A stretch of DNA of 41,037 nucleotides. It comes from Proteiniphilum sp. (GTDB taxonomy: Bacteria > Bacteroidota > Bacteroidia > Bacteroidales > Dysgonomonadaceae). Under the pieces are notes generated by a model. That model saw only the letters and a list, made by a program, of their open reading frames with translations. It was not told the origin of the DNA and did no database searches. Each line of letters opens with the position of its first letter. The stretch's first letter is position 1. A program made the position numbers and the translations under genes. The stretch covers positions 1 through 41,037 of the forward strand of contig JAHDQF010000074.1 in the NCBI GenBank assembly GCA_018433945.1, written 5' to 3'. Below are positions 3,255-39,912 of this stretch, one piece after another.

Positions 3255-3270
3255 TGTACTTGTCTGTTTG

Positions 3271-3305
3271 TTTGATAAGAATACCCAAAAAGAGTCGTAA
3301 CTTTG
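3271..3305 (+). promoter_or_regulatory. Predicted promoter for DUF4271-hemD
   Basis: TTTG (3271-3274) and TAACTTTG (3298-3305) separated by 23 bp. The -7 box ends 24 bp before the ATG at 3330. Both elements match the Bacteroidota consensus; the spacing is slightly long. Confidence 0.5.
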
Positions 3306-3329
3306 TGGCAAGTGACCTGATGATTAAGG

Positions 3330-4229
3330 ATGCGACAACTGACCATCATTCCCGATACTGTTTCATCCCTTCCCTTTCACCTGATGAGAGCCGAAGAGGA
3401 TTCTCTCATGTCTCTCCCCTTGCAACCTCACTTCGGAGCATTCGAATATCTTCCCACAGACAGCAGCCGACTTTACTTCGTGGCTGATACAGTGACAGGC
3501 CGATCCCTGCAGATGCTCAGCGGATTTCATGCCGGCGATCCGCTACCCTTTTCACCCCTGCTACAGGGGTTCTTTTTTCTGCTCTTATTGCTCGGCCTGC
3601 TCTTGTTTGCCATCTTCTGCCGTACGGAGAGCCGCTCTTTTCAGGGCAGTTTCAGGAATCTTTTTACAGTGGGCAGATCAACGCCCCTGCTCAGAAAGGA
3701 GCAGGTGACAACAACCGAAACATGGGGTGAGCTTTTCTTGATTTTCCAGACTGTGATGATTGTCAGTATGTTGGTTTTTCAAGGTTTGTGGAATAAGGGG
3801 GTCTCAGCATTTGAAATTGGCAATCAACTGGAGCTGTTTGTATCGATCATGGGTGTGCTGACCCTTCTTACAGTTTTGAAAGTGCTTTCATACAGGGTGA
3901 TAGGAACATTCTTTCTCTCCGCTGACCTGAAAAATTGGGTCAAACAGTATACCCGGATGCTGGAACTGATTGGAGTTGTTCTGTTTCTGCCGGCTGTCTG
4001 TTTTATCTTCCTGCCGGAATGGGAAAAGCTACTGTTGATCTTCTTCGTTCTCATTTTTCTGATCACCCGTCTGGTCATAATCATCGGGTTATTAAATATT
4101 TTTGTTAAAAATAAAATCGGAGGGTTCTATTTTTTTGTGTATCTTTGCGGCACTGAAATTGCGCCCTGGTTGATACTCTCTAAAGGAGTCCTTTCAATGA
4201 TAAATATTGCTGGAATAAATATTATATGA
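3330..4229 (+). CDS. DUF4271 integral membrane protein
   Basis: A 299-residue protein with a polar N-terminal ~75 residues followed by about six hydrophobic segments, near residues 78-98, 137-155, 168-190, 210-228, 232-258 and 265-285. The C-terminal FFVYLCGTEIAPWLILSKG block is the conserved end of the DUF4271 family of Bacteroidota membrane proteins. These are usually encoded just before uroporphyrinogen-III synthase. Here its stop overlaps the hemD start by 4 bp (ATGA), so the two are translationally coupled. The biochemical role of the family is not known; the link to haem synthesis is by context only. Confidence 0.85.
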   Translation: MRQLTIIPDTVSSLPFHLMRAEEDSLMSLPLQPHFGAFEYLPTDSSRLYFVADTVTGRSLQMLSGFHAGDPLPFSPLLQGFFFLLLLLGLLLFAIFCRTESRSFQGSFRNLFTVGRSTPLLRKEQVTTTETWGELFLIFQTVMIVSMLVFQGLWNKGVSAFEIGNQLELFVSIMGVLTLLTVLKVLSYRVIGTFFLSADLKNWVKQYTRMLELIGVVLFLPAVCFIFLPEWEKLLLIFFVLIFLITRLVIIIGLLNIFVKNKIGGFYFFVYLCGTEIAPWLILSKGVLSMINIAGINII

Positions 4230-4990
4230 ACGCCCGGAAAGTAAAAAAAATACTGATTTCACAGCCCAAGCCAAACAGCGAGAAATCGCCCTATTATGAT
4301 CTCGCCGAGAAGTATCATCTGGAGATCCACTTTTACCCCTTTATCAAGGTTGAACGTGTCTCATTGAAAGAGTTTCGGCAGCAACGAATCAATATCCTCG
4401 ATTACACGGCTATTATTTTTACAGCTCGTACCGCTGTAGATAAGTTTTTCTCCATTTGCGAAGAGATGAAGATTACCATCCCCGAAACCATGAAGTATTT
4501 CTGTGTGTCGGAGACTGTTGCGCTCTATCTGCAGAAGTATATCCTTTACCGGAAGAGGCGGATTTTTTTTAGCCAGACCGGTAAAATAGACGGACTCAGC
4601 ATTGCTTTCACCAAGCATGCCAAGGAGAAGTTTCTTTTACCCGTTCCGGAGGAGCACAACGATGAGATCTCTAACTTTCTCGATGAGAAAAAGATCAATT
4701 ATACCAAAAGTGTGATGTACCGAACCGTCAGCAATCAATTTGAGCCGGGTGAGAAGCTCGATTATGACATGATCATCTTCTTCAGCCCGTTGGGCGTTCA
4801 TTCACTCCTTACCAATTTCCCTGACTTCAAACAGGGTGACATGGCCATCGGTTGTTTTGGCGGCACAACAGCCAAAACGGTGGAGGAGTTAGGTCTGCGT
4901 CTCGATTGTGTGGCTCCGCAGCCCGATTATCCTTCCATGGCAGCGGCACTGGAAGCATTCATCAAGGAGAACCACAAGAACCACAACTGA
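4226..4990 (+). CDS. hemD: Uroporphyrinogen-III synthase
   Basis: Cyclises hydroxymethylbilane to uroporphyrinogen III in tetrapyrrole synthesis. The 254-residue product has the two-lobed HemD pattern: an N-terminal KILISQPKP strand, IIFTARTAVDKFF (the family's conserved 'S/T-x-A-V' loop), a second lobe with YRTVSN and IIFFSPLGVHSLL, and the terminal IGCFGGTTAKTVEELG loop. HemD is poorly conserved, so the call rests on these loops, the length and the DUF4271 partner. A perfect TATCTTTG at 4140-4147 inside the upstream gene might give it an internal promoter, but there is no -33 partner. Confidence 0.88.
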   Translation: MNARKVKKILISQPKPNSEKSPYYDLAEKYHLEIHFYPFIKVERVSLKEFRQQRINILDYTAIIFTARTAVDKFFSICEEMKITIPETMKYFCVSETVALYLQKYILYRKRRIFFSQTGKIDGLSIAFTKHAKEKFLLPVPEEHNDEISNFLDEKKINYTKSVMYRTVSNQFEPGEKLDYDMIIFFSPLGVHSLLTNFPDFKQGDMAIGCFGGTTAKTVEELGLRLDCVAPQPDYPSMAAALEAFIKENHKNHN

Positions 4991-5014
4991 CTCAGCTGAA
5001 GAGTCTCTCTCCGG

Positions 5015-5060
5015 GTAAAAAGGGGAGCCGGTGAATTGTCGCGAACAAATTCACCGGCTC
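5015..5060 (-). terminator. Intrinsic terminator after tatD
   Basis: A 13-bp perfect stem, GAGCCGGTGAATT (5025-5037) and AATTCACCGGCTC (5048-5060), with a 10-nt loop. Read leftward the stem is followed by CCCTTTTTAC, so it terminates the leftward rnpA-yidD-tatD transcript. On the + strand there is no T-run, so it would at most weakly stop the convergent hemD transcript. Confidence 0.8.
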
Positions 5061-5089
5061 TCTTGGTTAATAATCCAGCTTGAAAACAA

Positions 5090-5791
5090 CTATTCCGACT
5101 CCTCCTCCTGGTCGGGGTACCAGGTTCTGGGCACCTCCAGTGTCGGGAATACCTTTCTGACATTCTTTGCGATGCGCAGTGAGAATTGCTCCGGGTCCAT
5201 GTTGAGGGAACGGGCAGCCTGCTGGTATATATCGCGGATCGACATCTCATCCTCATCGGTTTCGCAGAAGAGCGCATCGAGCGGTATCAATTGCATTGAG
5301 GCCACATTGATCTGGTCACCTACCGAGAAAAGGAATCCCTCCCGAATCAACTGCTCTGTCAACTCGGGCTTGCCGTGATAACCATGGATGATCCAGGGTT
5401 GTGTGGGACGGGTCTCACGTCTCACCCGTATCAGTTCCTCCCATGCTTTCACACAGTGGATAATCACCGGTTTACGGAGCCTCTCCGACAGCTCGATATG
5501 CCTCTTGAAGACCGGGATTTGTATCTCGAAAGCGGGTCCTTTGAGTCGGTCCAACCCGGTTTCGCCGATAGCGATGATGCGTGGGTTGGGTGCGATCTCG
5601 TTCAGATAGGCCATCTGTGTGTCACTGTCTTCCGAGTACCAGGGATGGATGCCACAGGAGAAAGCGTGACGGTTGTATGATTCTTTGGCTACTTCAAACT
5701 CAAGGGGGTATACATCGAAGATACACGAGTGATAGGGATCATCGTCTTCCTCGAGAAAAATCTGGTGTGTGTGTACGTCGTAATATTCCAT
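5090..5791 (-). CDS. TatD-family metal-dependent hydrolase
   Basis: A 233-residue TIM-barrel hydrolase of the amidohydrolase superfamily. The N-terminal YDVHTH motif (His7, His9) supplies the first two metal ligands. IAIGETGLDRL gives the conserved Glu, and VIIHCVKAWEEL and WIIHGYHG the next histidines. SVGDQI and FCETDEDE carry the late acidic residues. TatD proteins are metal-dependent nucleases or hydrolases acting on DNA ends; this shorter form is common in Bacteroidota and its substrate is not certain. It starts 3 bp after the yidD stop and is probably the last gene of the rnpA-yidD-tatD operon, followed by a strong terminator. Confidence 0.88.
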   Translation of the reverse strand: MEYYDVHTHQIFLEEDDDPYHSCIFDVYPLEFEVAKESYNRHAFSCGIHPWYSEDSDTQMAYLNEIAPNPRIIAIGETGLDRLKGPAFEIQIPVFKRHIELSERLRKPVIIHCVKAWEELIRVRRETRPTQPWIIHGYHGKPELTEQLIREGFLFSVGDQINVASMQLIPLDALFCETDEDEMSIRDIYQQAARSLNMDPEQFSLRIAKNVRKVFPTLEVPRTWYPDQEEESE

Positions 5792-8004: not shown

Positions 8005-9174
8005 ATGAACAAATTTTTTACAATCTCTGCACTTTTTTTGGTGTCTCTGACCCTCTCGGCACAAAATGCATATACATTCACCGTGATTAAAGAAAATCCG
8101 ATTACCTCGGTGAAAAATCAAGCCAGTACGGGTACTTGTTGGAGTTTCTCGGGTGTAGGCTTCTTGGAATCCGAACTTATCCGTATGGGAAAAGGAGCAT
8201 ATGATCTCTCCGAGATGTATATTGTGAGGAGAAACTACGAGGATAAAGCGATCAAACATGCGCGCCTGCATGGCAACCTCAACTTCGCTCCCGGTGGATC
8301 CTTTGCAGATGTGATTGAGACCCTCGATGTTTACGGGGTGATGCCTGATGAGGCTTACAATGGTCTTCACTACGGTTCGGAGACACATAACCATGGAGAG
8401 CTGGACAGGGTATTGAAAAGTTACATGGATGGAGTGATCGGTGCCAAAAGCCTCTCGCCTGTCTGGAGTAAAGCTATCTCCGGAATCCTGGACAGTTACT
8501 TGGGGGAAGTGCCTCAAGCATTTACCTACGACGGAAAGGAGTACACGCCTGATACTTTTGCCGATGAGCTGGGACTGAATCAGGAGGATTACATCTCACT
8601 CACCTCATTCACCCATCATCCCTTTTATCAGCCTTTTGCCATTGAGGTACCTGACAACTGGCGCTGGGCGCTTTCTTACAACCTGCCCATGGGTGAACTG
8701 ATGGAGGTGATGGAACATGCGGTGATGGAGGGCTACACGATTGCCTGGGCTTCTGATGTGAGTGAAGCAGGTTTCTCCCGCAACGGCATTGCCATCGTAC
8801 CGGATGAGGAGGCTCCCGAAAATGCTGGCAGTGACCAGGCCAAATGGCTCGATCTCAGCAGCCGCGAACGGGATGCCGAGATCAGGGCTCGCATCGGTAG
8901 GCAGGTGTTGACTGAGAAAGTGATCACACAGGAGATGCGGCAACAGTCGTTCGATAACTATGAGACCACCGATGACCATGGCATGCAGATCTACGGGATT
9001 GCCCAGGATCAAAATGGAAACAAATTTTTCATGGTGAAGAACTCATGGGGTGAGACAGGAGCCTACAAGGGGCACTGGTACGCATCGTATCCATTCGTTA
9101 GTTACAAGACCCTGAGCATCGTGCTGCACAAGGATGCACTCCCGAAGGCAATCGCCCGGAAACTGGGCTTCTGA
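8005..9174 (+). CDS. Exported C1B (aminopeptidase C / bleomycin hydrolase-like) cysteine peptidase
   Basis: A papain-fold peptidase of 389 residues with a signal peptide (residues 1-19, cleavage after LSA). The active-site Cys45 lies in STGTCWSFSG, with the oxyanion Gln a few residues before it. His325 is in DDHGMQ and Asn346 in VKNSWG, completing the triad. The layout and length fit the C1B family found in Bacteroidota periplasm, where such enzymes trim peptides. The ATG is directly behind the composite repeat, whose last 11-bp units touch the start codon region. murF begins 25 bp downstream on the same strand. Confidence 0.9.
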   Translation: MNKFFTISALFLVSLTLSAQNAYTFTVIKENPITSVKNQASTGTCWSFSGVGFLESELIRMGKGAYDLSEMYIVRRNYEDKAIKHARLHGNLNFAPGGSFADVIETLDVYGVMPDEAYNGLHYGSETHNHGELDRVLKSYMDGVIGAKSLSPVWSKAISGILDSYLGEVPQAFTYDGKEYTPDTFADELGLNQEDYISLTSFTHHPFYQPFAIEVPDNWRWALSYNLPMGELMEVMEHAVMEGYTIAWASDVSEAGFSRNGIAIVPDEEAPENAGSDQAKWLDLSSRERDAEIRARIGRQVLTEKVITQEMRQQSFDNYETTDDHGMQIYGIAQDQNGNKFFMVKNSWGETGAYKGHWYASYPFVSYKTLSIVLHKDALPKAIARKLGF

Positions 9175-23874: not shown

Positions 23875-25968
23875 ATGAACATCCTTCAGACCGACATTCA
23901 ATATATTCCCGGCGTAGGACCCAAAAGGGCAGAGATCCTGCAGAAGGAGATCGAGGTCTTCACGCTGGGCGACCTGTTGCGATGGTATCCCTATCGTTAC
24001 ATCGATCGCACACGGATGTATTTTGTAAGCGAGATTGACCAGTCACAGGCTTATATTCAGCTGAAGGGAAAGATCACCGCTTTCGAAATCTTCGGGGAAG
24101 GACACAAGAGGCGACTGGTGGCGCACTTCACCGACGGCACCGGCGTGGTGGAGCTGGTTTGGTTCCAGGGAATCCGCTACATCGAGAATAAATACAAGAT
24201 CAACCAGGAGTATATTGTCTTTGGTAAACCCAATCTCTTCAATGGCAGGTGGAACATCCCCCATCCCGAAATCGATCCTTTTATGGATGAGTCGGACCGG
24301 CCCGAAGGGCTGATGGCGATGTACAACACCACGGAGAAGATGAAGAGCCACTATCTCAACTCCGGGGCGATGCGGAAAATCATTGGAAATGCCTTCGGGA
24401 TGATCAAAGAGCGGCTGCCCGAATCGCTTTCTGCCGATGTGGTTCAGGAGGCGAAGCTGATGCCCTTCCACGATGCGGTGGAAAACATTCACTTTCCGAA
24501 GTCACCCGCTCTGCTGCGTGATGCCCGGTTCCGGCTGAAGTTTGAAGAGCTCTTTTATTTACAACTCAGCATTGTACGGTATGCCTCCGACCGGAAGGAG
24601 AAGTTAAAAGGGCTCCTCTTTCCGAAAGTGGGTCGCCACCTCAATACATTTTATAAAAAGAAACTGCCTTTCCCGTTGACCCACGCGCAGAAACGGGTCA
24701 TCAAAGAGATCCGGCGAGACACAGCCACCGGTAGGCAGATGAACCGCCTGCTGCAGGGTGATGTGGGCAGCGGAAAGACGCTGGTGGCAATCATGTGCAT
24801 GCTGATAGCCCTCGATAATGGCTTTCAGTCCTGTCTGATGGCTCCGACTGAAATTCTGGCGGCGCAGCATTTTGCGACTTTCTCGCAGATGCTCTCAGGA
24901 ATGGAGGTGAAGGTGGCGCTGCTGACGGGTTCCACCAGGAAGAAAGAGCGGGAAGTGATTCATGCTGCCCTGCTCAGCGGCGAGATTGATATCCTGATCG
25001 GAACCCATGCCCTGATCGAGGATATTGTGCAGTTCCGCAACCTCGGCTTTGTGGTCATCGATGAGCAACACCGCTTTGGCGTGGTACAGCGGGCCAAGCT
25101 TTGGGAGAAAAGCAGTCAGCCCCCTCATGTGCTGGTGATGACCGCCACGCCCATCCCCCGTACGCTGGCCATGACGGTCTATGGCGACCTGGATGTCTCG
25201 GTGATCGATGAGCTGCCTCCGGGCAGAAAGCCGGTGCGAACCGTCCATCGCTACGATGCCAAACGGGGTGCCCTTTATCAGTTTATCCGGGAACAGATTC
25301 ATGCGGGGCGGCAGGCCTATTTTGTCTATCCGCTGATCGAGGAGAGCGAGAAGCTCGACCTGAAGAATCTGGAAGAAGGGTATGAGCATATCAAAACTGC
25401 CTTTCCGGAGTTTACTGTCTGCAAGCTGCACGGGCGGATGAAGCAGGCTGAGAAAGACGAGGTGATGCGGCAGTTTGTTTCGGGTAAAGCGCAGATCATG
25501 GTCTCCACTACCGTGATCGAGGTGGGGGTGGATGTGCCGAATGCCAGCGTGATGGTGATCGAGAGCGCCCAACGGTTTGGCCTCTCCCAGCTGCATCAGC
25601 TACGGGGCAGGGTGGGAAGGGGCGCCGACCAGGCCTGGTGCGTGCTGATCACCCCCTACGAGCTTTCAGCCGATACCCGCAAGCGGATTGAAATCATGAC
25701 CGAAACCAACGACGGCTTCGTGATTGCCGAAGCAGATCTGAAGCTGCGTGGCCCGGGCGACCTGGAGGGGACTCAGCAGAGCGGAATCCCTTTCAACCTG
25801 CACATTGCCGACCTGGTGCGCGACAACGCCATCCTCTTCCGTGCCCGCGAGATAGCCGAAGGTGTCATAGCCAGAGATCCCGGTCTGGAGCAGCCGGAGC
25901 ACCTGGTGCTGAAGCAACAACTCAGCCGCCTGAGCGGTAACCGTTATGACTGGAGCCGGATCAGTTAA
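23875..25968 (+). CDS. recG: ATP-dependent DNA helicase RecG
   Basis: A fork-reversal and Holliday-junction helicase of 697 residues. The N-terminal wedge/OB domain (to about residue 160, with YIPGVGPKRAEIL) is followed by helicase motifs: Walker A GDVGSGKT from residue 295, APTEILAAQH, GTHALI, DEQHRFGV (motif II, DEQH), MTATPIPRTLAM (motif III). The C-terminal helicase lobe has FGLSQLHQLRGRVGRG (motif VI). The start at 23875 overlaps nothing. The last 17 codons and stop are duplicated in frame at 30526-30579, marking this 3' end as the edge of an insertion. Confidence 0.97.
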   Translation: MNILQTDIQYIPGVGPKRAEILQKEIEVFTLGDLLRWYPYRYIDRTRMYFVSEIDQSQAYIQLKGKITAFEIFGEGHKRRLVAHFTDGTGVVELVWFQGIRYIENKYKINQEYIVFGKPNLFNGRWNIPHPEIDPFMDESDRPEGLMAMYNTTEKMKSHYLNSGAMRKIIGNAFGMIKERLPESLSADVVQEAKLMPFHDAVENIHFPKSPALLRDARFRLKFEELFYLQLSIVRYASDRKEKLKGLLFPKVGRHLNTFYKKKLPFPLTHAQKRVIKEIRRDTATGRQMNRLLQGDVGSGKTLVAIMCMLIALDNGFQSCLMAPTEILAAQHFATFSQMLSGMEVKVALLTGSTRKKEREVIHAALLSGEIDILIGTHALIEDIVQFRNLGFVVIDEQHRFGVVQRAKLWEKSSQPPHVLVMTATPIPRTLAMTVYGDLDVSVIDELPPGRKPVRTVHRYDAKRGALYQFIREQIHAGRQAYFVYPLIEESEKLDLKNLEEGYEHIKTAFPEFTVCKLHGRMKQAEKDEVMRQFVSGKAQIMVSTTVIEVGVDVPNASVMVIESAQRFGLSQLHQLRGRVGRGADQAWCVLITPYELSADTRKRIEIMTETNDGFVIAEADLKLRGPGDLEGTQQSGIPFNLHIADLVRDNAILFRAREIAEGVIARDPGLEQPEHLVLKQQLSRLSGNRYDWSRIS
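25915..25968 (+). repeat. recG 3'-end direct repeat, left copy
   Basis: The final 54 bp of recG including the stop. It matches 30526-30579 at 51 of 54 positions. Two differences are synonymous (CGT/CGG, TAT/TAC) and the third exchanges TAA for TGA. It contains the inverted repeat CTCAG-CCGC-CTGAG and the near-palindrome CGGTAACCG. It looks like one arm of an attachment-type duplication. Confidence 0.85.
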
Positions 25969-26097
25969 ACAGCCATCCTGAAACAACTATTGCGATAATA
26001 ATCATTGAACTTGATCATAGGCATTACGGTCCAGCGCATAATTGACAGATATCCGGGATTTTTTGTTGCGAATGAAAGGTAATTGGAGTGAATTGAT

Positions 26098-26105
26098 TAT
26101 TTTTG
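26098..26105 (+). promoter_or_regulatory. -7 box (TATTTTTG) of the transglutaminase pair
   Basis: A perfect TAnnTTTG element about 30-60 bp before the candidate starts at 26136 and 26166. No -33 partner at normal spacing. Confidence 0.4.
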
Positions 26106-26165
26106 TGGTGTCCTGATATTTATTTCAATTATTTCATGAATCATTTTGTACGGGCCCTTATGACG

Positions 26166-28007
26166 ATGAAGTATTTTTTTCTGTTGTTAATCTCATTCTT
26201 TCCTATTTCCCTTTTATCTCAAAGCGAAGATGATAACATGATTATCAGCGACCAGCAATCTACCTATACTTATATGAAGGAAGATGATAAGGTCGTGGTA
26301 AAAGAGAGACAGGCTGTCACTTATTCGTGTATCAAGAATGTTCAACCTGTCACCTTTTATCGGTTTTATGACACAAATTCAGAGATAACCAAAATCAGGG
26401 TAAAGGGCGTAAAATCTTCATCTCCAGAATATAAGACTTATACAAAGGAAAATATATTCTATGACGATTGTAAAGTTTGTCACCTTAATTTACACTTTAA
26501 GGAAACAAATGAAGTAGGTACGGTAACTTACGAAAAAAAGTATAAGGATGTATATACATTCTCATTTATCAATATCGCAGAGAATCATTTCATCAGGAAT
26601 AAAACGATCCGGATCATTGTTCCGCAGTGGATGGAGATAGATATTGCAGAAAATAATTTCGATTCGGGAATTAGCAGATCAGTAACCGTAGATCCTAAAT
26701 CGGGGGATACAATATATACTTTTTACATAGAAAATCAGGAAGCATACAGATATGAGGATTTTATGCCCGATTATATGCTCGCGTTTCCTGCTATTCAAAT
26801 TGTTCCCCGAAGAGCAGTCATAAATAAAAAAACAGAATCGTATTTTTACAGCTTCGAACATATGTATAAATGGTGTAAGAGTAAGGCTGATCTAACCAAT
26901 AATGACCATACCGTAATTGCACAACTTGCCAAAGAAATAACCAAAGACTGCGAAACCGGTCCGGATAAAATTAATGCATTACTTAACTGGGTTCAGAATA
27001 ATATAAGATATGTCGCATTTGAGTATGGCATTCAGGGATTTAAGCCTGATGAAGCACAGGCTGTGATAAGAAAGAAATATGGAGATTGCAAAGGGATGTC
27101 CAATCTGTTGAAATGTTTGTTGATGGCGGAAGGATTTGATGCTCGTCTGGTATGGATAAACACTACGGAATCCGGTCGTGAATGGACATTGCCTATCCCT
27201 TCTGCCGATCATATGATATGTGCATTGAACGATAACAACGAATTTCATTTCTTAGACCCTACCGTCAAATTTATGCCTTTTGGTGAAATAGCTTATCCCA
27301 TTCAGGGAAAAATAGCCATGGTGGAAGATGGCGATCATTATCTGATGCTTCGCACCCCATCGTTTCCCCCATCCCATAATAGGACTCACCTGGTAAGTCG
27401 GTATAGGATTGAAGGTGGAAGATTAACAGGCCAATCGGAGTTGTCTTTCAGCGGAGAATCCAAATATGCAATGACCTCTTCTATCCTGTATACCGGAAAA
27501 ACCGATATCGGTATGTACTTGAATAATTTCCTGAAGCGCAACAATCCGGCCGATTCAATTCTGGAGATGGAAATCAAAGGGATAGAGACCGGCTCAGAAA
27601 AACTGTCTATATCTTACAAAGATCTGCGTCCTTCGTGTGTCCGGTCTTTCTCTGATGAGTTGTATATCAATCCTGATGTCTTTCAGGATTTTGCGATGTT
27701 AACCATTGATACGCTCAAAAGAAAGAATGATTATGTATTTCCTTTCAGTGAACACTATGAGAGTAGTATTCAGCTAGTAATTCCCGAAGGTTACCGGGTG
27801 GTAAATATGCCTACGGATATGGAGATACAGACAGATGATTACGCATTCAGTATTCGTTATGGTGTGAATGATGATCATATTCTGTATCATAAAGAGATTA
27901 CGATCAAAAAAACAACCTTGCCGAAATCAAATTTCCGTCAATGGAATGCAGACATAGAACTACTGAGAAACGCATATTTAAGACAGATCACACTTCAGAA
28001 AATTTAA
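26166..28007 (+). CDS. Exported DUF3857/transglutaminase-like protein with intact triad
   Basis: A 613-residue exported protein. From ATG 26166 it has a signal peptide (KYFFLLLISFFPISLLSQ); ATG 26136 is an alternative. An N-terminal beta-rich DUF3857 domain (about 25-250) is followed by a transglutaminase core (about 265-375) with Cys308 in YGDCKGMSNLL, His349 in SADHMICAL and Asp364 in FHFLDPT. The C-terminal ~230 residues are beta strands. Such proteins in Bacteroidota sit in the periplasm or envelope, and their substrates are unknown. It is AT-richer than recG next door. The next gene is a relative that lacks the triad. Confidence 0.85.
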   Translation: MKYFFLLLISFFPISLLSQSEDDNMIISDQQSTYTYMKEDDKVVVKERQAVTYSCIKNVQPVTFYRFYDTNSEITKIRVKGVKSSSPEYKTYTKENIFYDDCKVCHLNLHFKETNEVGTVTYEKKYKDVYTFSFINIAENHFIRNKTIRIIVPQWMEIDIAENNFDSGISRSVTVDPKSGDTIYTFYIENQEAYRYEDFMPDYMLAFPAIQIVPRRAVINKKTESYFYSFEHMYKWCKSKADLTNNDHTVIAQLAKEITKDCETGPDKINALLNWVQNNIRYVAFEYGIQGFKPDEAQAVIRKKYGDCKGMSNLLKCLLMAEGFDARLVWINTTESGREWTLPIPSADHMICALNDNNEFHFLDPTVKFMPFGEIAYPIQGKIAMVEDGDHYLMLRTPSFPPSHNRTHLVSRYRIEGGRLTGQSELSFSGESKYAMTSSILYTGKTDIGMYLNNFLKRNNPADSILEMEIKGIETGSEKLSISYKDLRPSCVRSFSDELYINPDVFQDFAMLTIDTLKRKNDYVFPFSEHYESSIQLVIPEGYRVVNMPTDMEIQTDDYAFSIRYGVNDDHILYHKEITIKKTTLPKSNFRQWNADIELLRNAYLRQITLQKI

Positions 28008-28020
28008 ATCGGATATATTT

Positions 28021-30224
28021 ATGACGACAAAGATTTCCGTTTTTTTTTATTTTTATTCATTCTATTCTCAATAAATGCTTTTGCCGATGATCGTCAGTCA
28101 CATGCAAAAACTGTAAGGGAAATGGTTTGGGCCTGGGATAAGCCCGAGTTTAAGGATTACGAATTGCCTGCCGGCCATGAAAACGAATCGGCAGTTATTC
28201 TTGCCCGTCATCAGCACATCGAAGCAACCAGCAAAAACCGGTTCAGGATGAATGCTCTTCTGTTCGGGGATGTTAACCGCGAGTTATTTTATACGAATAT
28301 CGACAGACAGATGGTCAAGATAAATGACCTGTCGGCATTGACCGAATTTGCGGAATTGTCATTCCGGGAAGAGGCTAAACTAAGCGGATATATGCGGTCA
28401 AACAAACTCAGAACAATCGTGGGTGCACGTGTGATCAAACCAGATGGCAGTGTGGCAGAGGTAGCGATCGACGAAGAGGCCGTAGCCATCACCGAAGGCA
28501 GGAAAGATAAAGACGTACTGAAGAAGGTAGCTATTCCTGGCTTGCAGGTGGGTGATATTCTGGATTATTTCGTGTGTGATGAGATGGAACTCGAAACTTA
28601 TAATGTTCCGCCCGAGATATTTACCTTTTTCGGTCAATATCCCATATTAAAATATTCCATCCATTGTGAATTCGGGAATAAACTCACTGTGGAATACCGT
28701 TCCGTCAATGGCGCTCCTGAAATGCAATTGACCACAGATGCCGATAACAATTATATACTTGACGCTGAAGCAGAGAATCTGATGAAGGTACCCGCATTCG
28801 ATGAAATACGTTGGTTTTCGCCTTACAGGAGTCTTCCCATGATTCGTATGTATGTGTTGAACAATTCGTCTAAATTGATATACAAATCGCCCAATGCCCG
28901 TAAAAGCGGCGTGCATGAAAATCTGCCTTATGACGAATATCTGAACGATGCCAAAACTTTTCTGGCAGCTCAGGAAAAGCAAATGTTCTGGATGAAGGAA
29001 ACCAACAGGAAAGTGAAAAAAACCGTATCAGAATATATTGAAAAGCATCCGTCAATGAATAAGGAAGAACTGGCGGTATTGTTGTATGATGCATTGCGTT
29101 TTCATTGGCCGAACGACTATGCCAATTATCCGCGATTGAAGTTTAATGTCAGGCTGCAGCAACTTTTTAAAGAGCATAATGTTTCGCACAACTTTTTGTT
29201 TGTTACAAGCAGGTTTGGTGCACGAAAAGACGACGTAGTTTCAGACGAAGATATGATAACCGGTTTATTGGCAAACGATAGCCAACTGTTCTTTTTCATA
29301 AACGGATACAGATATGCCGGAGAAATCCCGTCAATCTATCAGGGGGAGACCGCTTCTACGGTTGAGGTCGTAAAATATGCCATGAATAAGAAGTATGGTA
29401 TAGAAGGTAGTCAGGGACAATATGAAATTCCGGAGTCAAAAACCGATGATAATCTCTTAACCTCAGCGATTAAAGTAAATCTCTTTGCCAATAATCTACT
29501 ACAGTTGAATGTGACACGTAATCTCAAGTGTACCGGCAGCATGAAAGAAGACTATTGGCCGTTGGTGCTTTATGAAGATTGGGATAAAGAAATGAGGCAA
29601 AAGCTGGGGATAGGACAAACGTTGCTGGAAGAGTTACAGGAAAACAAATCAACCCGTAAACACATTGATGAATATGTCTCGGCATTGGAGAACCACAGGA
29701 AGAATCAAAAAGAGAATGTCGAACTGGAACTTACAGCATATCATGGACAAAAACCGGATAAGATCACAGACTATTCTTTCAGTGCGACAGGTACGACTGC
29801 TGACTGTCCTGCATTGGATTATACAGTATCCTATACCGTAGACGGGTTGGTGAAAAGTGCGGGAGACAACCTTATCCTCGACATAGGCAGACTGATAGGG
29901 CAACACTGGGAGCCGGATGAACGGGATGAAAAACGAAATATAGACGCCTATCTGCCGTCATCCATGCGGTTGAATTATAACATTGAGATAGAAATTCCCG
30001 AAGGATATGCCGTTGAGGGATTAGATGCATTATCTTCAGACTATTCAAACGATTACGGCGGATTTCACGCCGGTTATAGGTTTGAAGGGAACAAGCTCTT
30101 CGTATCGGTACATAAGATATATGAAAAGTCGTATGTTCCGGTTGATCAATGGAACGAAATGCTTCTGATCGCAAGGAAAACGAACGATTTTCAGGCAAAG
30201 ACAATTATTCTCAAAAAGTTATAG
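28021..30224 (+). pseudogene. DUF3857/transglutaminase-like partner, frameshifted in a T9 run
   Basis: The intact frame starts at ATG 28122 and encodes 700 residues with no signal peptide. ATG 28021, 13 bp after the previous gene, opens a frame that would give a typical signal peptide (MTTKISVFF... ending INAFA) if the T-run at 28040-28048 had ten Ts; with nine it stops at once. The body has a DUF3857-like N-terminal region and a transglutaminase-like middle whose catalytic Cys region reads FNVRLQQLFKEHNVSHNFLF, with no Cys. So the protein is probably an inactive partner, here either phase-off, mutated or misread by one base. Translation from 28122 would give a cytoplasmic form. Confidence 0.75.
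28040..28048 (+). other. Homopolymer T9 in the signal-peptide region
   Basis: Nine T residues; ten would restore the reading frame through a complete signal peptide into the 700-residue frame. A slippage-prone site of this kind is a candidate phase-variation switch, but a single-base assembly error would look the same. Confidence 0.6.
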
Positions 30225-30458
30225 CACGAAAATACAAAACCGGATCCGGTTCTGCAAACGCTGGCTGGCACCCCAGAGAAGACGTGTGCCAGGCATGGCA
30301 ACTAAGTTATGTAGTTATCAATCCATTCTTTTTACATTTCTCCAAAAATCGTATCTTTCTTCTATAAATTCCCCAATTCACGCACACGAACAGAACAAAG
30401 TGAAGTGAGGTAAAACGCTCAATTTTTATGGGTCTGTGTAAATGTATAAACTTTTATG

Positions 30459-30466
30459 TATATTTG
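30459..30466 (+). promoter_or_regulatory. -7 box (TATATTTG) before the recG-tail copy
   Basis: TATATTTG with TGTG 20 bp upstream (30435-30438). The nearest frame, from ATG 30472, reads 17 codons to a stop and then, still in the same frame, the duplicated recG tail. No gene to be expressed was found; the gap 30225-30635 otherwise shows nothing coding. Confidence 0.3.
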
Positions 30467-30525
30467 TTGCAATGAAAAAAATAAAAACCTTTACGTATTG
30501 TAACCGAAAATCCCGCGTTTTATAA

Positions 30526-30579
30526 CAACAACTCAGCCGCCTGAGCGGTAACCGGTACGACTGGAGCCGGATCAGTTGA
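30526..30579 (+). repeat. recG 3'-end direct repeat, right copy
   Basis: Encodes QQLSRLSGNRYDWSRIS and a stop, identical in protein to the end of recG but with synonymous codon changes. No recG sequence precedes it. It closes a 4.6-kb AT-rich block that starts at the left copy. The silent differences suggest the tail came from a related but distinct recG allele, not from a recent slip. Confidence 0.85.
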
Positions 30580-30635
30580 AATATATGGACACGTGTGGGG
30601 AACATAGGCTCACCCTTTAGGGTAAAGTTATTAAA

Positions 30636-31829
30636 TTAATACAAAAAACCAAACATCCATAATGGAATTTTGTTTTGAAAACCGTATTCAATATTGTCGG
30701 CGACTACAAAAGCGTTTTTAGTATTTTTTATCTGCTCGTCGCTCTTGCTTTTTCCGCCAATTTCAAAGGTGAACTTATCGTCCACCACAAAGTCGCCGCT
30801 ATCCACATATTCAATTTTGTGTTTGTAGGATAACTGATTGAGGAAGAATGTTTCCCGGATGTTGCCAATATCAGTGTTCGCTGATACCAGCGCAAAACTG
30901 ATATTTGAATTTTCCAGATATATTTTATCCGGTTTTTGCAGCTTGTTTACACCGTCGGCGTCTTTGTAGAGATGCTTTATCAATCCCGCTTCCTCAAGAT
31001 AGTGTAAATAGTTAATAAAAGTAATTCTTTCTATACCGATCCGTTGACTTAATTTACTAACATTTGGAATAAATGGAACCGATTCGGCGACAATTTGCAA
31101 CAGTTGCTTTATTTTTTTTATATATGCGACTTCAACGCCCCTCAACAGAGGCAGTTCTACCTCCAGAACCATATTGACGATTTCCTCAACCCGGTGGAAA
31201 TATAGTGCCGGCGCTTCGCCAAAAAACGGATAATACCCGTGTCGTAAATAGTTGGAGAAATGTTCCAGCGGTTTGATTTGACGCAACACTTCGGATGAAA
31301 TAGAACGCTGATTATTTAACAAATCTGACAGATTTACAATCTCAAAGCTTGTTTTGAAATTCATATTAAGATATTCCCTGAACGAAAGTCCCTGCATATA
31401 ATAAACCACAGCTCGCCGGCTTAAATCAACTTTTGAGTTAAGAATTTCAAGCATCGACGAGCCTGTAAATACTACTTTCAGGCTGGGAAAATCGTCGTAG
31501 ATATTTTTAAGCTCAACCGACCAGTTCGGATATTTATGAATTTCGTCGAGAAAAAGATTTTTACCACCACGTTTTGAAAATGTATCGACTAATTCCACCA
31601 ATTTATGTTCCGAAAACCAGATATTATCAGCGCTGACATACAAAGTGTGTTCATCGCCATATAGATTCTGCTTGATATATTGTAGCAAAAGCGTAGTTTT
31701 TCCCACACCTCGCGGACCAATAATTCCGATAAAACGATAGTTCCACTCGATTTCTTCCATTATGCCGCGGACAAAGTCAAGTCTTGTTTGCTCCACTTTC
31801 TGAGCTGATTTTTCCAATAAACCCTCCAT
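30636..31829 (-). CDS. AAA_14/DUF4143 family ATPase
   Basis: A 397-residue protein with an N-terminal AAA domain: Walker A GPRGVGKTTLL (about residues 36-46), Walker B NLFLDEIH and the sensor-1-like VVFTGSSMLEI. A winged-helix region follows (about 235-290, VSKLSQRIGIERITFINYLHYLEEAGLI). It ends in a DUF4143 segment with FFLNQLSYKHKIEYVDSGDFVVDDKFTFEIGGKSKS, similar to PD-(D/E)XK-like nuclease remnants. These ATPases are abundant, often near mobile DNA, and their role is not established. The ATG at 31829 is preferred to 31838. Promoter elements are tandemly repeated just upstream. Confidence 0.87.
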   Translation of the reverse strand: MEGLLEKSAQKVEQTRLDFVRGIMEEIEWNYRFIGIIGPRGVGKTTLLLQYIKQNLYGDEHTLYVSADNIWFSEHKLVELVDTFSKRGGKNLFLDEIHKYPNWSVELKNIYDDFPSLKVVFTGSSMLEILNSKVDLSRRAVVYYMQGLSFREYLNMNFKTSFEIVNLSDLLNNQRSISSEVLRQIKPLEHFSNYLRHGYYPFFGEAPALYFHRVEEIVNMVLEVELPLLRGVEVAYIKKIKQLLQIVAESVPFIPNVSKLSQRIGIERITFINYLHYLEEAGLIKHLYKDADGVNKLQKPDKIYLENSNISFALVSANTDIGNIRETFFLNQLSYKHKIEYVDSGDFVVDDKFTFEIGGKSKSDEQIKNTKNAFVVADNIEYGFQNKIPLWMFGFLY

Positions 31830-31850
31830 ATAAATCAATTTTGCGTATTC

Positions 31851-31925
31851 GACTATACAAAGATAGTGGTTTTTTGATTACTCTACTATACAAAAATAGT
31901 GATTTTTTGATTATTCGACTATACA
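31851..31925 (-). repeat. 33-bp tandem repeat carrying duplicated -7 boxes
   Basis: Two full units and part of a third, based on GACTATACAAARATAGTG plus TTTTTTGATTAYTC, period 33 bp. Read leftward each unit has a -7 box: TATCTTTG at 31865-31858 and TATTTTTG at 31898-31891. The nearer box is 29 bp before the ATPase ATG. The rest of the gap up to 32191 shows no recognisable gene. Confidence 0.7.
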
Positions 31926-32191
31926 TAATGAAAAACAGGTTTTTTTGCAAATATTTCATTGTTGCCATTATTGCTGTAGTCTTTGTCTTTCACTGTACTG
32001 AGATTTCCATTTTTACTGCATTTCTAATTTCCGGTAACAAACGGGAAACAACTGCCTGTCGGGAGAAGATATAAAGATGAGGTGAATAACATACTGGGGA
32101 CACAGGAATAACCCAGACCCATGATGATCTACACGTTGAAAAGGTCGGCGTTGAAGACCACAAGGATATCCTCACTCCAATCGGACCGTAT

Positions 32192-33172
32192 TTAACGAAC
32201 CTTTAAGACAACTTTGCCCACATGATTTCCTTCCTTCACATAAGCATGTGCTTTTTCCACATCCTCGAGCATGAATATTCGGTCAATGATGGGTTTGATT
32301 TTGCCTTCTGTAAACAGGGGTAAAACTTTTTGCACAAAGCGGCTGGTCAACATCGATTTTTCGGCGGTGGAACGAAGGCGCATCATGGTGCCCATTAATT
32401 TTCCTCTTTTGATCATCAAAAGCTGCAATGGCAATTCTACTTTATTACCTCGCAAAAGACCAATTTGCACGATTCTACCCTGAGTGGCCAGAACCTGAAG
32501 GTTGGAAAGCAGATAATCACCGCCGACCGGATCCAGAATGACATCCATTCCTTTAGGGCACAAATCAGGAAGAATCTCGGAAAACATTTCCTGATCATAA
32601 GCGATAGGACGTGACAACAGACCTAAACTTTTTAGCCGCTCGGTTTTTCGGCTGCTTGCCGTGCCAAATACGTTTAATCCCCAGGCATTGGCCAATTGGA
32701 TCGCTGCCGTACCCACACCACTGGCCGCGGCATGAACCAAAATGGTCTCGCCAAAAGCAGTATCTGCCTGTATCAGCGCATCATAGGCTGTAAAAAATAC
32801 TTCAGGAATCGCCGCGGCTTCCACAAAATCCAGACTTTGCGGAATTGGCATAAGCATGCTTTCGGGAACGATGGCTTTTTCCGCATATCCACCCCCCGGT
32901 AACAGGGCGAAAACCCGATCGCCCCTTTTCCACGTTGTCACGCCCTCGCCCACTTGAGCGATGATGCCCGCACATTCCAGTCCGGGAATTTCCTTTCCAT
33001 TCATTTTATAATCGCCGGGATATTGCCCCAGGACCTGTAAAATATCGGCGCGATTAACCGATGTTGCATGAACATCGATACAGACATGCCCATGAGGGCA
33101 AGGCAGATCGGAGATTTCCTGCATGACAAGCCTTCCCCTTTGCTGCTGACGATCTATTATTACTGCTTTCAT
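32192..33172 (-). CDS. NAD(P)H:quinone oxidoreductase, zinc-free MDR family
   Basis: A 326-residue medium-chain dehydrogenase/reductase of the quinone oxidoreductase (QOR/PIG3) type. The N-terminal GroES-like domain has NRADILQVLGQYPG and IPGLECAGIIAQVGEGV, and it lacks the zinc-binding cysteines of alcohol dehydrogenases. The Rossmann domain has ILVHAAASGVGTAAIQLA (the nucleotide loop) and DVILDPVGGDYL. It probably reduces quinones or enones with NADPH. The leftward promoter at 33214-33182 supports this start. The ATPase lies downstream but 360 bp away. Confidence 0.9.
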   Translation of the reverse strand: MKAVIIDRQQQRGRLVMQEISDLPCPHGHVCIDVHATSVNRADILQVLGQYPGDYKMNGKEIPGLECAGIIAQVGEGVTTWKRGDRVFALLPGGGYAEKAIVPESMLMPIPQSLDFVEAAAIPEVFFTAYDALIQADTAFGETILVHAAASGVGTAAIQLANAWGLNVFGTASSRKTERLKSLGLLSRPIAYDQEMFSEILPDLCPKGMDVILDPVGGDYLLSNLQVLATQGRIVQIGLLRGNKVELPLQLLMIKRGKLMGTMMRLRSTAEKSMLTSRFVQKVLPLFTEGKIKPIIDRIFMLEDVEKAHAYVKEGNHVGKVVLKVR

Positions 33173-33376: not shown

Positions 33377-34126
33377 CTATTCTTCGTCTATTTCTCCTGT
33401 TTCCAGGTCGGTAACATAGCGGCTCCCTGAAATTTCGATGGTAGCTTCCCCGTTGCCGGTGAAGGTAATCGTCCCTTCATAGCTGAACGAACCGCGTCCG
33501 CTGCCGCCTGTCATGGTGAAATGAATGGTACCGTTGTCGATTTCCTTAGGTTCCTTTTCAACAGCAACATTCACAAGCTCGAATTGAATGGTGGTCTGAC
33601 GGTTTGCCTGGTTACGGATTTTTGACTCGAACCCGCCGCTTCGTTGCCATGTACCGTTTATCAGGTACATATCGGAAGTATTTTCGATGTCTGTGATTTC
33701 AAAATCACCGCTCACCGAGTGTGTGGAACCCAATCGGGGTGCATCGAATGTACCGTTATAGCTAAAGCTTGCATCCAGCATAACCGGGTTCTCCGACTCA
33801 TCGCACGACAGCGCGTAATGGTAAGTTTTGGTGTTATTATAAGTAATTAAACTGGTTCCGGCAGAGGTGACGATGGTTGTGTCAGCCGATTCTCCACAAC
33901 TCAGTCTTCCCTCATTAACCGCCTCGCTGGCAAGTGTGGCGGTAGTTTCAATATCCGCCGTAATACCGGATGTTCCTTCTGACAAACTATAAGCCACCAT
34001 TTCGGCTGCTTCTGCTTCCGTAGCCGGTTCATCAGCTATCGATTCGTCATCCTTTTCACAGGAACTGAGAATTGACATTCCCGAAAGGGTAATGATACCC
34101 GCTAATAAAAGATTTCTTGTTTGCAT
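33377..34126 (-). CDS. Lipoprotein, paralogue of the gene at 39.2 kb
   Basis: A 249-residue predicted lipoprotein with lipobox LSSC (Cys23) followed by acidic residues (EKDDE). A helical segment (AEAAEMVAYSLSEG) precedes a beta-rich body with LSCGESADTT, YHYALSCDE and SYEGTITFTGNGEATIEISG. I do not recognise a named family. It is about 85% identical, by eye, to the 246-residue gene at 39172-39912. Its first codons (MQTRN) and entire upstream region instead match the Spy-like gene at 39943-40356, so this copy arose by joining that gene's promoter and start to the lipoprotein frame. Confidence 0.85.
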   Translation of the reverse strand: MQTRNLLLAGIITLSGMSILSSCEKDDESIADEPATEAEAAEMVAYSLSEGTSGITADIETTATLASEAVNEGRLSCGESADTTIVTSAGTSLITYNNTKTYHYALSCDESENPVMLDASFSYNGTFDAPRLGSTHSVSGDFEITDIENTSDMYLINGTWQRSGGFESKIRNQANRQTTIQFELVNVAVEKEPKEIDNGTIHFTMTGGSGRGSFSYEGTITFTGNGEATIEISGSRYVTDLETGEIDEE

Positions 34127-37802: not shown

Positions 37803-37899
37803 AGAACTTTTTTTATTTTCGTTCTCATAAACAGTTTCATTTCGGCAGCAAAAGAAACATAATGTAAATTCAATTTTTATTGTTTTCAAAGATATTCAT

Positions 37900-37907
37900 T
37901 ATTTTTG
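37900..37907 (+). promoter_or_regulatory. -7 box (TATTTTTG) of the AbiEi gene
   Basis: TATTTTTG with ATTG 17 bp upstream (37879-37882), 29 bp before ATG 37937. It favours that start over the open frame from 37880. Confidence 0.45.
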
Positions 37908-37936
37908 TAGTTGAATTTACTGTGCAATTGTATACT

Positions 37937-38746
37937 ATGAGTATAGAAAATAGAAATAAACTTAACTATTTGCTTCAGAAAAAGAATGCTGGCGGTCTGT
38001 ATTTTTCTGCATGGCTGAAAGAAAATGGCTATTCTGACCAATTGTTGAAAAAATATAGAGATTCGGGCTGGCTTACTTCTTTATCTAAAGGTGTAATGTA
38101 TCGCACCGGAGATAAACTGCGTTCTTTTTCAGTGTTGGAAAGTTATAATGAACAGTTGAAAAAAAACTACCATGTGGCGGCTCACTCTGCTTTAGAATTT
38201 TCAGGTTTTAATCATTATGTTCCTATGGGCAAACCGTTGTTAATGGTTGGACATCCCAAACATGAATCCGTTCCTTCCTGGATGTTGAAGGATGTTTTTG
38301 ACTACTCCTTGAAGTTTTTTTCAACTGAAACATTTTCTAAACCACAATTGGTAACATTAAGTTCTGAATATCCTCATGTACAAATATCAGTTTCTGAACA
38401 GGCTTTCCTTGAATGCTTATTATTGACGCCGAAATATTATTCCTATATGGATTTATTTTATATCATGGAGCAACTGACAACTCTTCGTCCGCAGGTTTTA
38501 CAATTAATATTGGAAAATACGAGTAATATCAAGGTCAAAAGGATGTTCCTTTATATGGCTGAAAAAGCCGGTCATTATTGGTTTGATTCGCTTGATATAA
38601 GCAAAATGCATTTGGGCACGGCAAAGCATAAATTAGTAGAAAACGGAGTTTATGTATCCAAATATAAAATAACGGTACCCAAGAGGACAAAGAACTTTGT
38701 GCTAAAGCCCAATCTGAATTTAATATGCGGTGTATGGCTCAAATAG
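37937..38746 (+). CDS. AbiEi-family antitoxin, toxin partner broken
   Basis: A 269-residue protein of the type IV toxin-antitoxin AbiEi family. The N-terminal winged helix (FSAWLKENGYSDQLLKKYRDSGWLTSLSKGVMYRTGD) is followed by the larger C-terminal domain with YHVAAHSALEFSGF and VSEQAFLECLLLTP. AbiEi represses its own promoter and counters the AbiEii nucleotidyltransferase toxin. The last ~20 residues (RTKNFVLKPNLNLICGVWLK) look unlike the family and probably result from the deletion that removed most of AbiEii immediately downstream. Confidence 0.85.
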   Translation: MSIENRNKLNYLLQKKNAGGLYFSAWLKENGYSDQLLKKYRDSGWLTSLSKGVMYRTGDKLRSFSVLESYNEQLKKNYHVAAHSALEFSGFNHYVPMGKPLLMVGHPKHESVPSWMLKDVFDYSLKFFSTETFSKPQLVTLSSEYPHVQISVSEQAFLECLLLTPKYYSYMDLFYIMEQLTTLRPQVLQLILENTSNIKVKRMFLYMAEKAGHYWFDSLDISKMHLGTAKHKLVENGVYVSKYKITVPKRTKNFVLKPNLNLICGVWLK

Positions 38747-39171: not shown

Positions 39172-39912
39172 TTATTCTTCTTCTACTTCACCTGTTTCCA
39201 AATTGGTAACGTAACGGTTTCCGGAGATTTCAATGATGGCTTCCCCGTTGCCGGTGAAGGTAATCGTTCCTTCATAGCTGAACGAACTGCGTCCGCTGCC
39301 GCCTGACATGGTGAAATGAATGGTACCGTTGTCGATTTCCTTGGGTTCCTTTTCAATAGCCACATTAACAAGCTCGAATTGAATGGTGGTCTGACGGTTT
39401 GCCAGGTTTCCGATTTTGGACTCAAACCCGCCGGTTCGTTGCCATGTTCCGTTGAACAGGTACATATCGGAAGTATATTCAATTTGCTTGATTTCAAAAT
39501 CACCGCTCACCGAGTGCGTGGAAGCCAGGCGAGGGGCATCGAATTCACCGTCATAGCTAAAGCTTACATCCAGCATAACCGGGTTCCCCGACTCATCGCA
39601 TTCCAGCGCATAATGGTAAGTTTTGGTGTTATGATAGGTAATCACGCTGGTACCTGTAGTAACCATGGTGGTATCTGCCGATTCACCACAACTTAGACTA
39701 TCAACCGCCACGTTGGCAAGTGCGGCGGCAGTTTCAATATCCGATGCAGTACCGGAGGTTCCTTCAGACAAACTATAAGCCACCATTTCGGCTGCTTCTG
39801 CTTCGGTAGCCGGTTCATCAGCTATCGATTCGTCATCCTTTTCACAGGAACTGAGAATTAACATTCCCGAAAGGGTAATAATACCCGCTAATAAAAGATT
39901 TTTTGTTTTCAT
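39172..39912 (-). CDS. Lipoprotein, paralogue of the gene at 33.4 kb
   Basis: A 246-residue lipoprotein (MKTKNLLLAG..., LSSC with Cys23) sharing the whole length of the 33377-34126 gene: the acidic N-terminal segment, two Cys-containing loops (LSCGES, LECDES) and the beta-rich C-terminal half. The start region differs: here MKTKN preceded by a short gap after the Spy-like gene, which is probably the ancestral order. It is probably the second gene of a Spy-like-lipoprotein operon. Function unknown; an envelope-stress output is inferred from context. Confidence 0.85.
   Translation of the reverse strand: MKTKNLLLAGIITLSGMLILSSCEKDDESIADEPATEAEAAEMVAYSLSEGTSGTASDIETAAALANVAVDSLSCGESADTTMVTTGTSVITYHNTKTYHYALECDESGNPVMLDVSFSYDGEFDAPRLASTHSVSGDFEIKQIEYTSDMYLFNGTWQRTGGFESKIGNLANRQTTIQFELVNVAIEKEPKEIDNGTIHFTMSGGSGRSSFSYEGTITFTGNGEAIIEISGNRYVTNLETGEVEEE

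What the first reader, a model, noticed from the sequence alone, without database searches (positions are those of the whole stretch)
25915..30579. AT-rich 4.6-kb insertion bounded by an in-frame duplication of the recG 3' end
The last 54 bp of recG recur at 30526-30579. Only three bases differ: two synonymous changes and TAA to TGA. The 4.6 kb between them is visibly AT-richer than recG and encodes two exported transglutaminase-like proteins. Elements that integrate at a gene's 3' end typically bring a replacement end and displace the old one, leaving this footprint, and silent differences imply the tail came from another allele. The repeat holds the dyad CTCAG-CCGC-CTGAG. No integrase is visible, so the element may be mobilised in trans, decayed, or inserted by homologous recombination.
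Basis: partly seen in the sequence, partly recalled or inferred. Interest (0 to 1): 0.85.

Follow-up and report, generated by a model that had tools for sequence, protein, structure and literature searches.

The report
Scar of a second recG copy
The duplicated end of the recG gene is real, but it looks like the leftover stump of a second recG copy brought together with the first by ordinary, error-prone recombination, not the footprint of a mobile element that carried the two genes in between.

Summary
The repeat is real: window 30526-30580 matches the recG end 25915-25969 at 52 of 55 bases. The element reading is not supported. In relatives the two genes between the tails (TG1, TG2) also stand after recG, usually before a convergent GH92 gene, with no second tail (5 of 5 TG-bearing recG loci tested; 0 of 17 relatives tested have one). 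Here GH92 follows too, about 15 kb right of the second tail, so the lineage-specific DNA lies right of the tail. A third tail, on contig C45, is joined to two more recG fragments and to the same right-hand flank, with 2-6 nt overlaps at each joint. So the tail is the stump of a second recG allele, not a short attachment site. One relative (G013) has two intact recG genes, another (G042) a decayed extra copy; G043 is undecided. Left of the tail is a truncated dispersed sequence, so the joint looks like a deletion. Best explanation: two recG-locus versions were joined by integrase-free recombination, then the redundant recG eroded. Single-step homology-facilitated illegitimate recombination is the main rival. 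A new instance of a known kind; modest interest.

The parts
23875..25968 (+). recG (resident copy, recG-A), 697 aa
   Evidence: NCBIfam RecG equivalogs, Pfam RecG domains; 95.1% nt identity to nearest relative G020, in line with dnaG 95.3, SHMT 91.8, ilvE 91.5
25915..25968 (+). 3' end of recG-A, first copy of the repeat
25967..26008 (-). 42-nt remnant of the 3' end of a convergent gene, 83% like the end of an amino-acid permease gene in relative G004
   Evidence: AA_permease_2 for the G004 gene
26103..28007 (+). TG1, exported transglutaminase-like protein
   Evidence: Pfam PF01841 E 2e-9; same place in relatives
28122..30224 (+). TG2, 700 aa, DUF3857 match below Pfam's cut-off
   Evidence: homologues follow TG1 in G010, G012, G045, G096
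30356..30468 (+). Copy of a dispersed intergenic repeat of the genus, ending in a TAnnTTTG-like -7 motif (motif recalled)
   Evidence: own genome C85, C45, C10, C4; 16 of 39 genus genomes (own included) matched some part of the 30225-30530 query
30504..30526 (+). Outer 23 nt of a dispersed sequence, truncated at the recG tail; longer copies (126/138 alike) on C87 and in G108, there near an IS1380-type transposase fragment
30526..30579 (+). Second recG tail: stump of a second allele (recG-B); the in-frame codon before it is TAA, so it is not translated as part of a longer frame
30580..30629 (+). Flank of recG-B, also follows the recG fragments on contig C45
30636..31838 (-). AAA_14 ATPase gene (DUF4143 part below cut-off), convergent to recG-B
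32192..33172 (-). PIG3-family quinone oxidoreductase gene; its low-coordinate end (32192-32375) is shared with C45; no match in the other 38 genus genomes at E <= 1e-40

Best explanation
The second tail is the stump of a second, slightly diverged recG (recG-B) that was followed by its own neighbours (ATPase, oxidoreductase and further genes). DNA carrying recG-B and these neighbours came to lie between the resident recG-TG1-TG2 and GH92 by recombination in or around conserved genes of the locus, without a site-specific recombinase, giving a genome with two recG copies as in relative G013. The redundant copy then eroded by deletions between short matches. In the window the last deletion ran from inside a dispersed element to 54 nt before the end of recG-B. 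On contig C45 another copy of the same block, beside dnaG-ilvE-CYTH, kept two more recG pieces. Shown: the allele relation, the C45 mosaic and its joints, the synteny in relatives, an intact double recG in one relative, absence of second tails in the TG-bearing relatives tested. Inferred: the lateral origin of recG-B, the order of events, and that both blocks lie in one cell rather than in two strains of one bin.
For: C45 mosaic: L009 8447-8545 = recG 25402-25500 (90%), 8540-8597 = recG 25693-25750 (95%), 8589-8683 = 30535-30629 (94%), 8680-8761 = 31785-31865 (96%), 8753-8968 = 32160-32375 (99%); exact overlaps at the joints 6, 2, 3, 4 nt, measured on the window's letters. C45's left side is syntenic with relatives up to about 8309. 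GH92 follows on contig C6, joined to the window by a 141-nt exact overlap. G013 has two full recG genes about 30 kb apart in direct order; among the ORFs between them I recognised no integrase by eye, without a family search. G042 has a decayed extra copy on C38. recG-A is no outlier against G020. Second tail in 0 of 17 relatives tested.
Against: The 30525/30526 joint itself has only 1 nt of overlap and its left parent is known only as a 23-nt fragment. No relative with an intact recG-B plus the 30580 flank was found: 21 of the other 38 genus genomes match 30526-30640, and none of these matches passes query base 62 of 115. The genome is a 92-contig assembly of 92% completeness; C45 may be a strain variant.
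Confidence: 0.48

Rival explanations
1. Single-step homology-facilitated illegitimate recombination (HFIR): one linear incoming fragment recombined homologously at one end (recG side or GH92 side) and illegitimately at the other, joining the TG version to the recG-B version in one event and leaving the 54-nt end behind. No stage with two full recG genes.
For: Same end product from one event; a footprint of this kind (new module with displaced older gene parts after it) is described for T6SS effector loci of Vibrio cholerae (PMC5361080, passages). HFIR is described with 3-10 bp micro-homology and insertions coupled to deletions (PMC3240628, passages).
Against: Only 1 nt overlap at 30526; the inserts described average about 1 kb and the process is rare; on C45 a recG copy has lost internal pieces step by step; recG-A shows no sign of replacement.
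Confidence: 0.3
2. One reading: an element of 4.6 kb carrying TG1-TG2 integrated by a site-specific recombinase at the recG 3' end, bringing a replacement end.
For: Two near-identical 54-nt ends flank the segment; TG1-TG2 was not found beside recG in the nearest relatives, as far as their contigs reach.
Against: TG1-TG2 follows recG without a second tail in relatives; among 80 Bacteroidales recG loci, 70 with at least 1 kb downstream, only 4 gave hits to their own tail, all of 15-27 nt at E 0.002-0.006, while the window and G013 as positive controls were found; C45 carries further recG pieces next to the tail; the left neighbour of the tail is a truncated dispersed sequence; no integrase seen.
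Confidence: 0.06
3. Assembly or binning artefact: strain mixture joined two haplotypes at a shared sequence.
For: Draft genome; C45 ends where it would merge with the window path (126 identical bases at its end); G042 shows a probable chimeric recG contig and G043 a possible one.
Against: Shared sequence at the 30526 joint is 1 nt and at the C45 joints 2-6 nt, far below usual assembly word lengths (recalled); C45's left flank and the window's recG side are syntenic with relatives.
Confidence: 0.1

Closest known systems
Displaced gene parts at Vibrio cholerae T6SS loci, attributed to something akin to homology-facilitated illegitimate recombination (PMC5361080; passages read)
   Same: Displaced remains of the old locus, in one proposed step the 3' end of an effector gene, are left downstream of the new module; no recombinase needed
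   Different: Here the gene is a housekeeping helicase whose resident copy stays intact, and a second decayed copy of the block exists elsewhere in the assembly
Rhs C-terminal displacement with orphaned 3' regions (cited in PMC5361080; the primary papers were not read)
   Same: Orphaned 3' ends as recombination scars
   Different: No new C-terminus is fused to recG here; recG-A is full length and matches the RecG models over its whole length
Integrative elements using the 3' end of a protein gene as attachment site (recalled)
   Same: Gene end duplicated at the far side of inserted DNA
   Different: No integrase seen, imperfect repeats, further recG pieces on C45, and relatives with the cargo but no second end

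Membership tests
Site-specific integrative element at a gene 3' end | Integrase gene inside the segment | tested here: not met
   Between the tails the frames of 100 aa or more are TG1, TG2 and two antisense frames of 110-111 aa; Pfam on TG1 and TG2 gives no recombinase; the two antisense frames were not searched
Site-specific integrative element at a gene 3' end | Displaced end limited to the att core, with no more of the target gene beside it | tested here: not met
   Met in the window itself, but on C45 two further recG pieces lie beside the same tail and flank
Site-specific integrative element at a gene 3' end | Cargo occurs with the second end in other genomes | tested here: not met
   0 of 5 TG-bearing relatives, one of them with TG remnants only
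Homology-facilitated illegitimate recombination product | One end homologous to the resident locus | tested here: inconclusive
   SHMT-recG and GH92 are recurrent flanks, but no breakpoint is visible in recG-A
Homology-facilitated illegitimate recombination product | Illegitimate joint with 3-10 bp micro-homology | tested here: inconclusive
   1 nt at 30526 (left parent known only as a 23-nt fragment); 6, 2, 3, 4 nt at the four C45 joints
Merodiploid recG followed by deletion | Two recG copies, whole or decayed, in the genome or relatives | tested here: met
   Stump and C45 pieces in G000, two full genes in G013, a decayed extra copy on C38 of G042; G043 undecided

The most novel reading that the evidence does not exclude
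The SHMT-recG-GH92 interval of these Dysgonomonadaceae is an integrase-free exchange hotspot in which recG repeatedly serves as a homologous anchor for importing cargo (TG pair, ATPases, polysaccharide-utilisation genes), leaving stumps of displaced recG copies that can be read as a record of past exchanges.
Probability: 0.28. Interest if true: 0.42.

Novelty: new member of a known kind. Interest (0 to 1): 0.25.

Why it matters
It warns that a duplicated gene end is not by itself evidence of a mobile element. It also gives a small, testable case of how accessory DNA can collect beside a DNA-repair gene without an integrase in sight.

Tried and rejected
Site-specific att reading (see rivals). 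The dyad as a functional site: present in 3 of 27 recG tails, coding. Plasmid or phage origin: the region 30226-32400 matched 2 plasmid records, both inside the ATPase gene, one annotated as AAA ATPase and one without annotation; TG2 matched one unannotated 4.5-kb record of the phage collection over its whole length at 28% (E 3e-79), not followed up; the dispersed 30504 sequence had no plasmid match. An apparent recG split in G042 (contigs C101/C102) was set aside as a likely assembly chimera at a conserved helicase motif, since its 3' half is at most about 49% like the other RecG held. The break of G020 contigs inside the recG tail looked like a second copy but is read as one gene split over two contigs with a short overlap. 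IS1380-mediated deletion: no transposase match in this genome (which itself warns that an empty answer without a positive control shows nothing), and the 138-nt shared segment lies beyond the 5' end of the transposase frame, so its membership in that IS is open. In one search the many 37-41% matches in frames of about 1,000-1,170 aa (taken for Mfd, name recalled) and the roughly 30% matches were dropped from the count of recG copies. The RecG tree used 27 rows; G042a and G042b were dropped and genomes whose recG surroundings I had not fetched were left out; TG presence on it needs 5 changes, no fewer than shuffled labels on average (5.5), and G007 (remnants) was labelled TG, G015 (partial TG2 elsewhere) not. 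The second-tail test took 17 of the relatives fetched; G013, G042, G043 (extra copies known or suspected) and G004, G011, G014, G016, G020, G022, G054 (short or split downstream) were not in it. A paper search for recG, genomic island, integration site and Bacteroid together gave 0 papers; Proteiniphilum with horizontal gene transfer and recombination gave 4 listed papers, none opened; HFIR gave 49 papers, 10 listed, 2 opened for passages.

Full report
Observation. The last 54 nt of recG (25915-25968) recur at 30526-30579 with two synonymous changes and a changed stop. The match is far beyond chance: E 3.2e-18 in the whole genome, while the best other placement in the window is 29 of 55, within the range of five shuffles. 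The in-frame codon directly before the second tail is TAA, so it is a stump, not an extended gene.

Where the window lies. The window is contig C73 of a 92-contig, 2.31 Mb assembly, 92% complete. The closest named matches of its RecG are mostly Proteiniphilum, Petrimonas and Fermentimonas records (the own record may be left out there). Contig C6 continues the window: the last 141 bases of C73 equal the end of C6, and a histidine kinase gene runs across the joint.

What is ancestral. Scanning relatives with window proteins shows a recurrent order SHMT-recG-GH92. TG1-TG2 lies between recG and GH92 in G012, G096 (another genus) and G010 (there 26 kb after recG), as deletion remnants in G007, and after recG in G045 (no GH92 in the held part). 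G015 has a partial TG2 near GH92 away from recG. In other relatives a Gfo/Idh-type gene follows recG instead (G020, G009, G023, G044, G047, G011). TG2 occurs in 11 of 101 family genomes, 6 of them of this genus. Between recG and TG1 stand different things in different genomes: DUF5686 in G045, AAA_14/DUF4143 in G096, and in the window a remnant of a permease end. None of 17 relatives tested, 5 of them TG-bearing, has a second recG tail in the 8-36 kb of DNA held downstream. In this genome GH92 lies on C6 at what would be window coordinate 45164. So the extra DNA is what follows the second tail. TG1-TG2 is nonetheless not simply vertical: this genome groups with TG-less relatives in the RecG tree, on which the TG label is no more clustered than chance, and TG2 of G000 and G010 (83%) is closer than TG2 of G010 and G012 (80%) although the RecGs are 83% and 93% alike.

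What the second tail is. A third tail lies on C45. There a chain of pieces follows dnaG-ilvE-CYTH, which is syntenic with relatives up to about L009:8309: recG 25402-25500, recG 25693-25750, 30535-30629 (tail plus 50 nt of flank), 31785-31865 (start of the ATPase gene), 32160-32375 (end of the oxidoreductase gene, to the contig end). Exact overlaps at the four joints are 6, 2, 3 and 4 nt, as expected for deletions between short matches. So the tail with its flank once belonged to a longer recG, followed by the ATPase and oxidoreductase genes. About 137 nt before the first recG piece on C45 match nothing else I hold. C45 ends with 126 bases identical to the window, as a branch of an assembly graph would; I infer that the junction into the shared oxidoreductase gene is in the reads.

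Relatives. In 39 genus genomes (own included) searched with RecG, G013, a one-contig genome, has two full recG genes in direct order about 30 kb apart, both with SHMT before and GH92 (one copy shortened) after. G042 has a decayed copy on C38 (residues 106-154, 447-534 and 507-696, one stop inside). G043 looked like a second copy reduced to residues 332-434 and 653-697 beside GH92, but its main recG contig (99.9% like G013) starts with 23 bases that occur exactly in that tail; the tail may therefore be the end of its only recG, and I do not count it. In a wider set of 80 Bacteroidales recG loci (70 with at least 1 kb downstream) only 4 gave hits to their own tail, of 15-27 nt at E 0.002-0.006, which I take for chance; the window and G013 were found as positive controls. 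The phenomenon thus looks local to this group and not a general recG attachment site.

The joint. Left of the tail lie a dispersed intergenic repeat (30356-30468) and 23 nt (30504-30526) that begin a longer dispersed sequence: C87 and G108 share 126 of 138 nt from the same first base. In the window this sequence is cut after 23 nt by the recG tail, with a 1-nt overlap. In G108 it lies beside a fragment of an IS1380-family transposase (NF033539, below its cut-off). A deletion running from this element into recG-B gives the joint directly.

Judgement. The recG-A copy behaves like other core genes against G020, so recG-B and what follows it are the likelier newcomers. I favour a two-copy stage followed by erosion, because G013 shows the start of that path and C45 the erosion. 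A single homology-facilitated illegitimate event gives the same end product and cannot be excluded; a like footprint is in print for Vibrio T6SS loci (PMC5361080, passages; mechanism in PMC3240628, passages). The demotion of G043 moved my odds slightly from the stepwise to the single-step route (0.52 to 0.48, 0.27 to 0.30) and the hotspot reading from 0.30 to 0.28. The element model is left with little support. Interest is modest: the process is known, the locus is new to me (I ran two paper searches that could have shown it).

Noticed in passing
window 30356-30468: About 90-nt dispersed intergenic repeat of the genus ending in a Bacteroidota-type -7 motif (motif recalled), perhaps a mobile or conserved promoter cassette; 16 of 39 genomes (own included) matched some part of 30225-30530
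   Followed up: partly
window 31839-31937: Three tandem 33-nt repeats upstream of the AAA_14 ATPase gene, part of the first also on C45
   Followed up: no
window 33377-34126 and 39172-39912: Two paralogous lipoprotein-like genes, 84% alike, without a family match at Pfam's cut-off, near two-component regulator genes or pieces: possibly a duplicated signalling cluster
   Followed up: no
window 37880-38746: AbiEi-type antitoxin gene; I saw no clear full-length partner among the neighbouring frames
   Followed up: no
G042 C102 (L282), 3102-5183: recG frame with a genus-type 5' part and a 3' half at most about 49% like other RecG held, followed by another gene's start; probably an assembly chimera
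   Followed up: partly
L009 8310-8446: 137 nt of unknown origin between the CYTH flank and the recG pieces on C45
   Followed up: partly
MT839222.1 1903-3969: A 4.5-kb record of the phage collection encodes a full-length TG2 relative at 28% identity; phage origin of that record not checked
   Followed up: no
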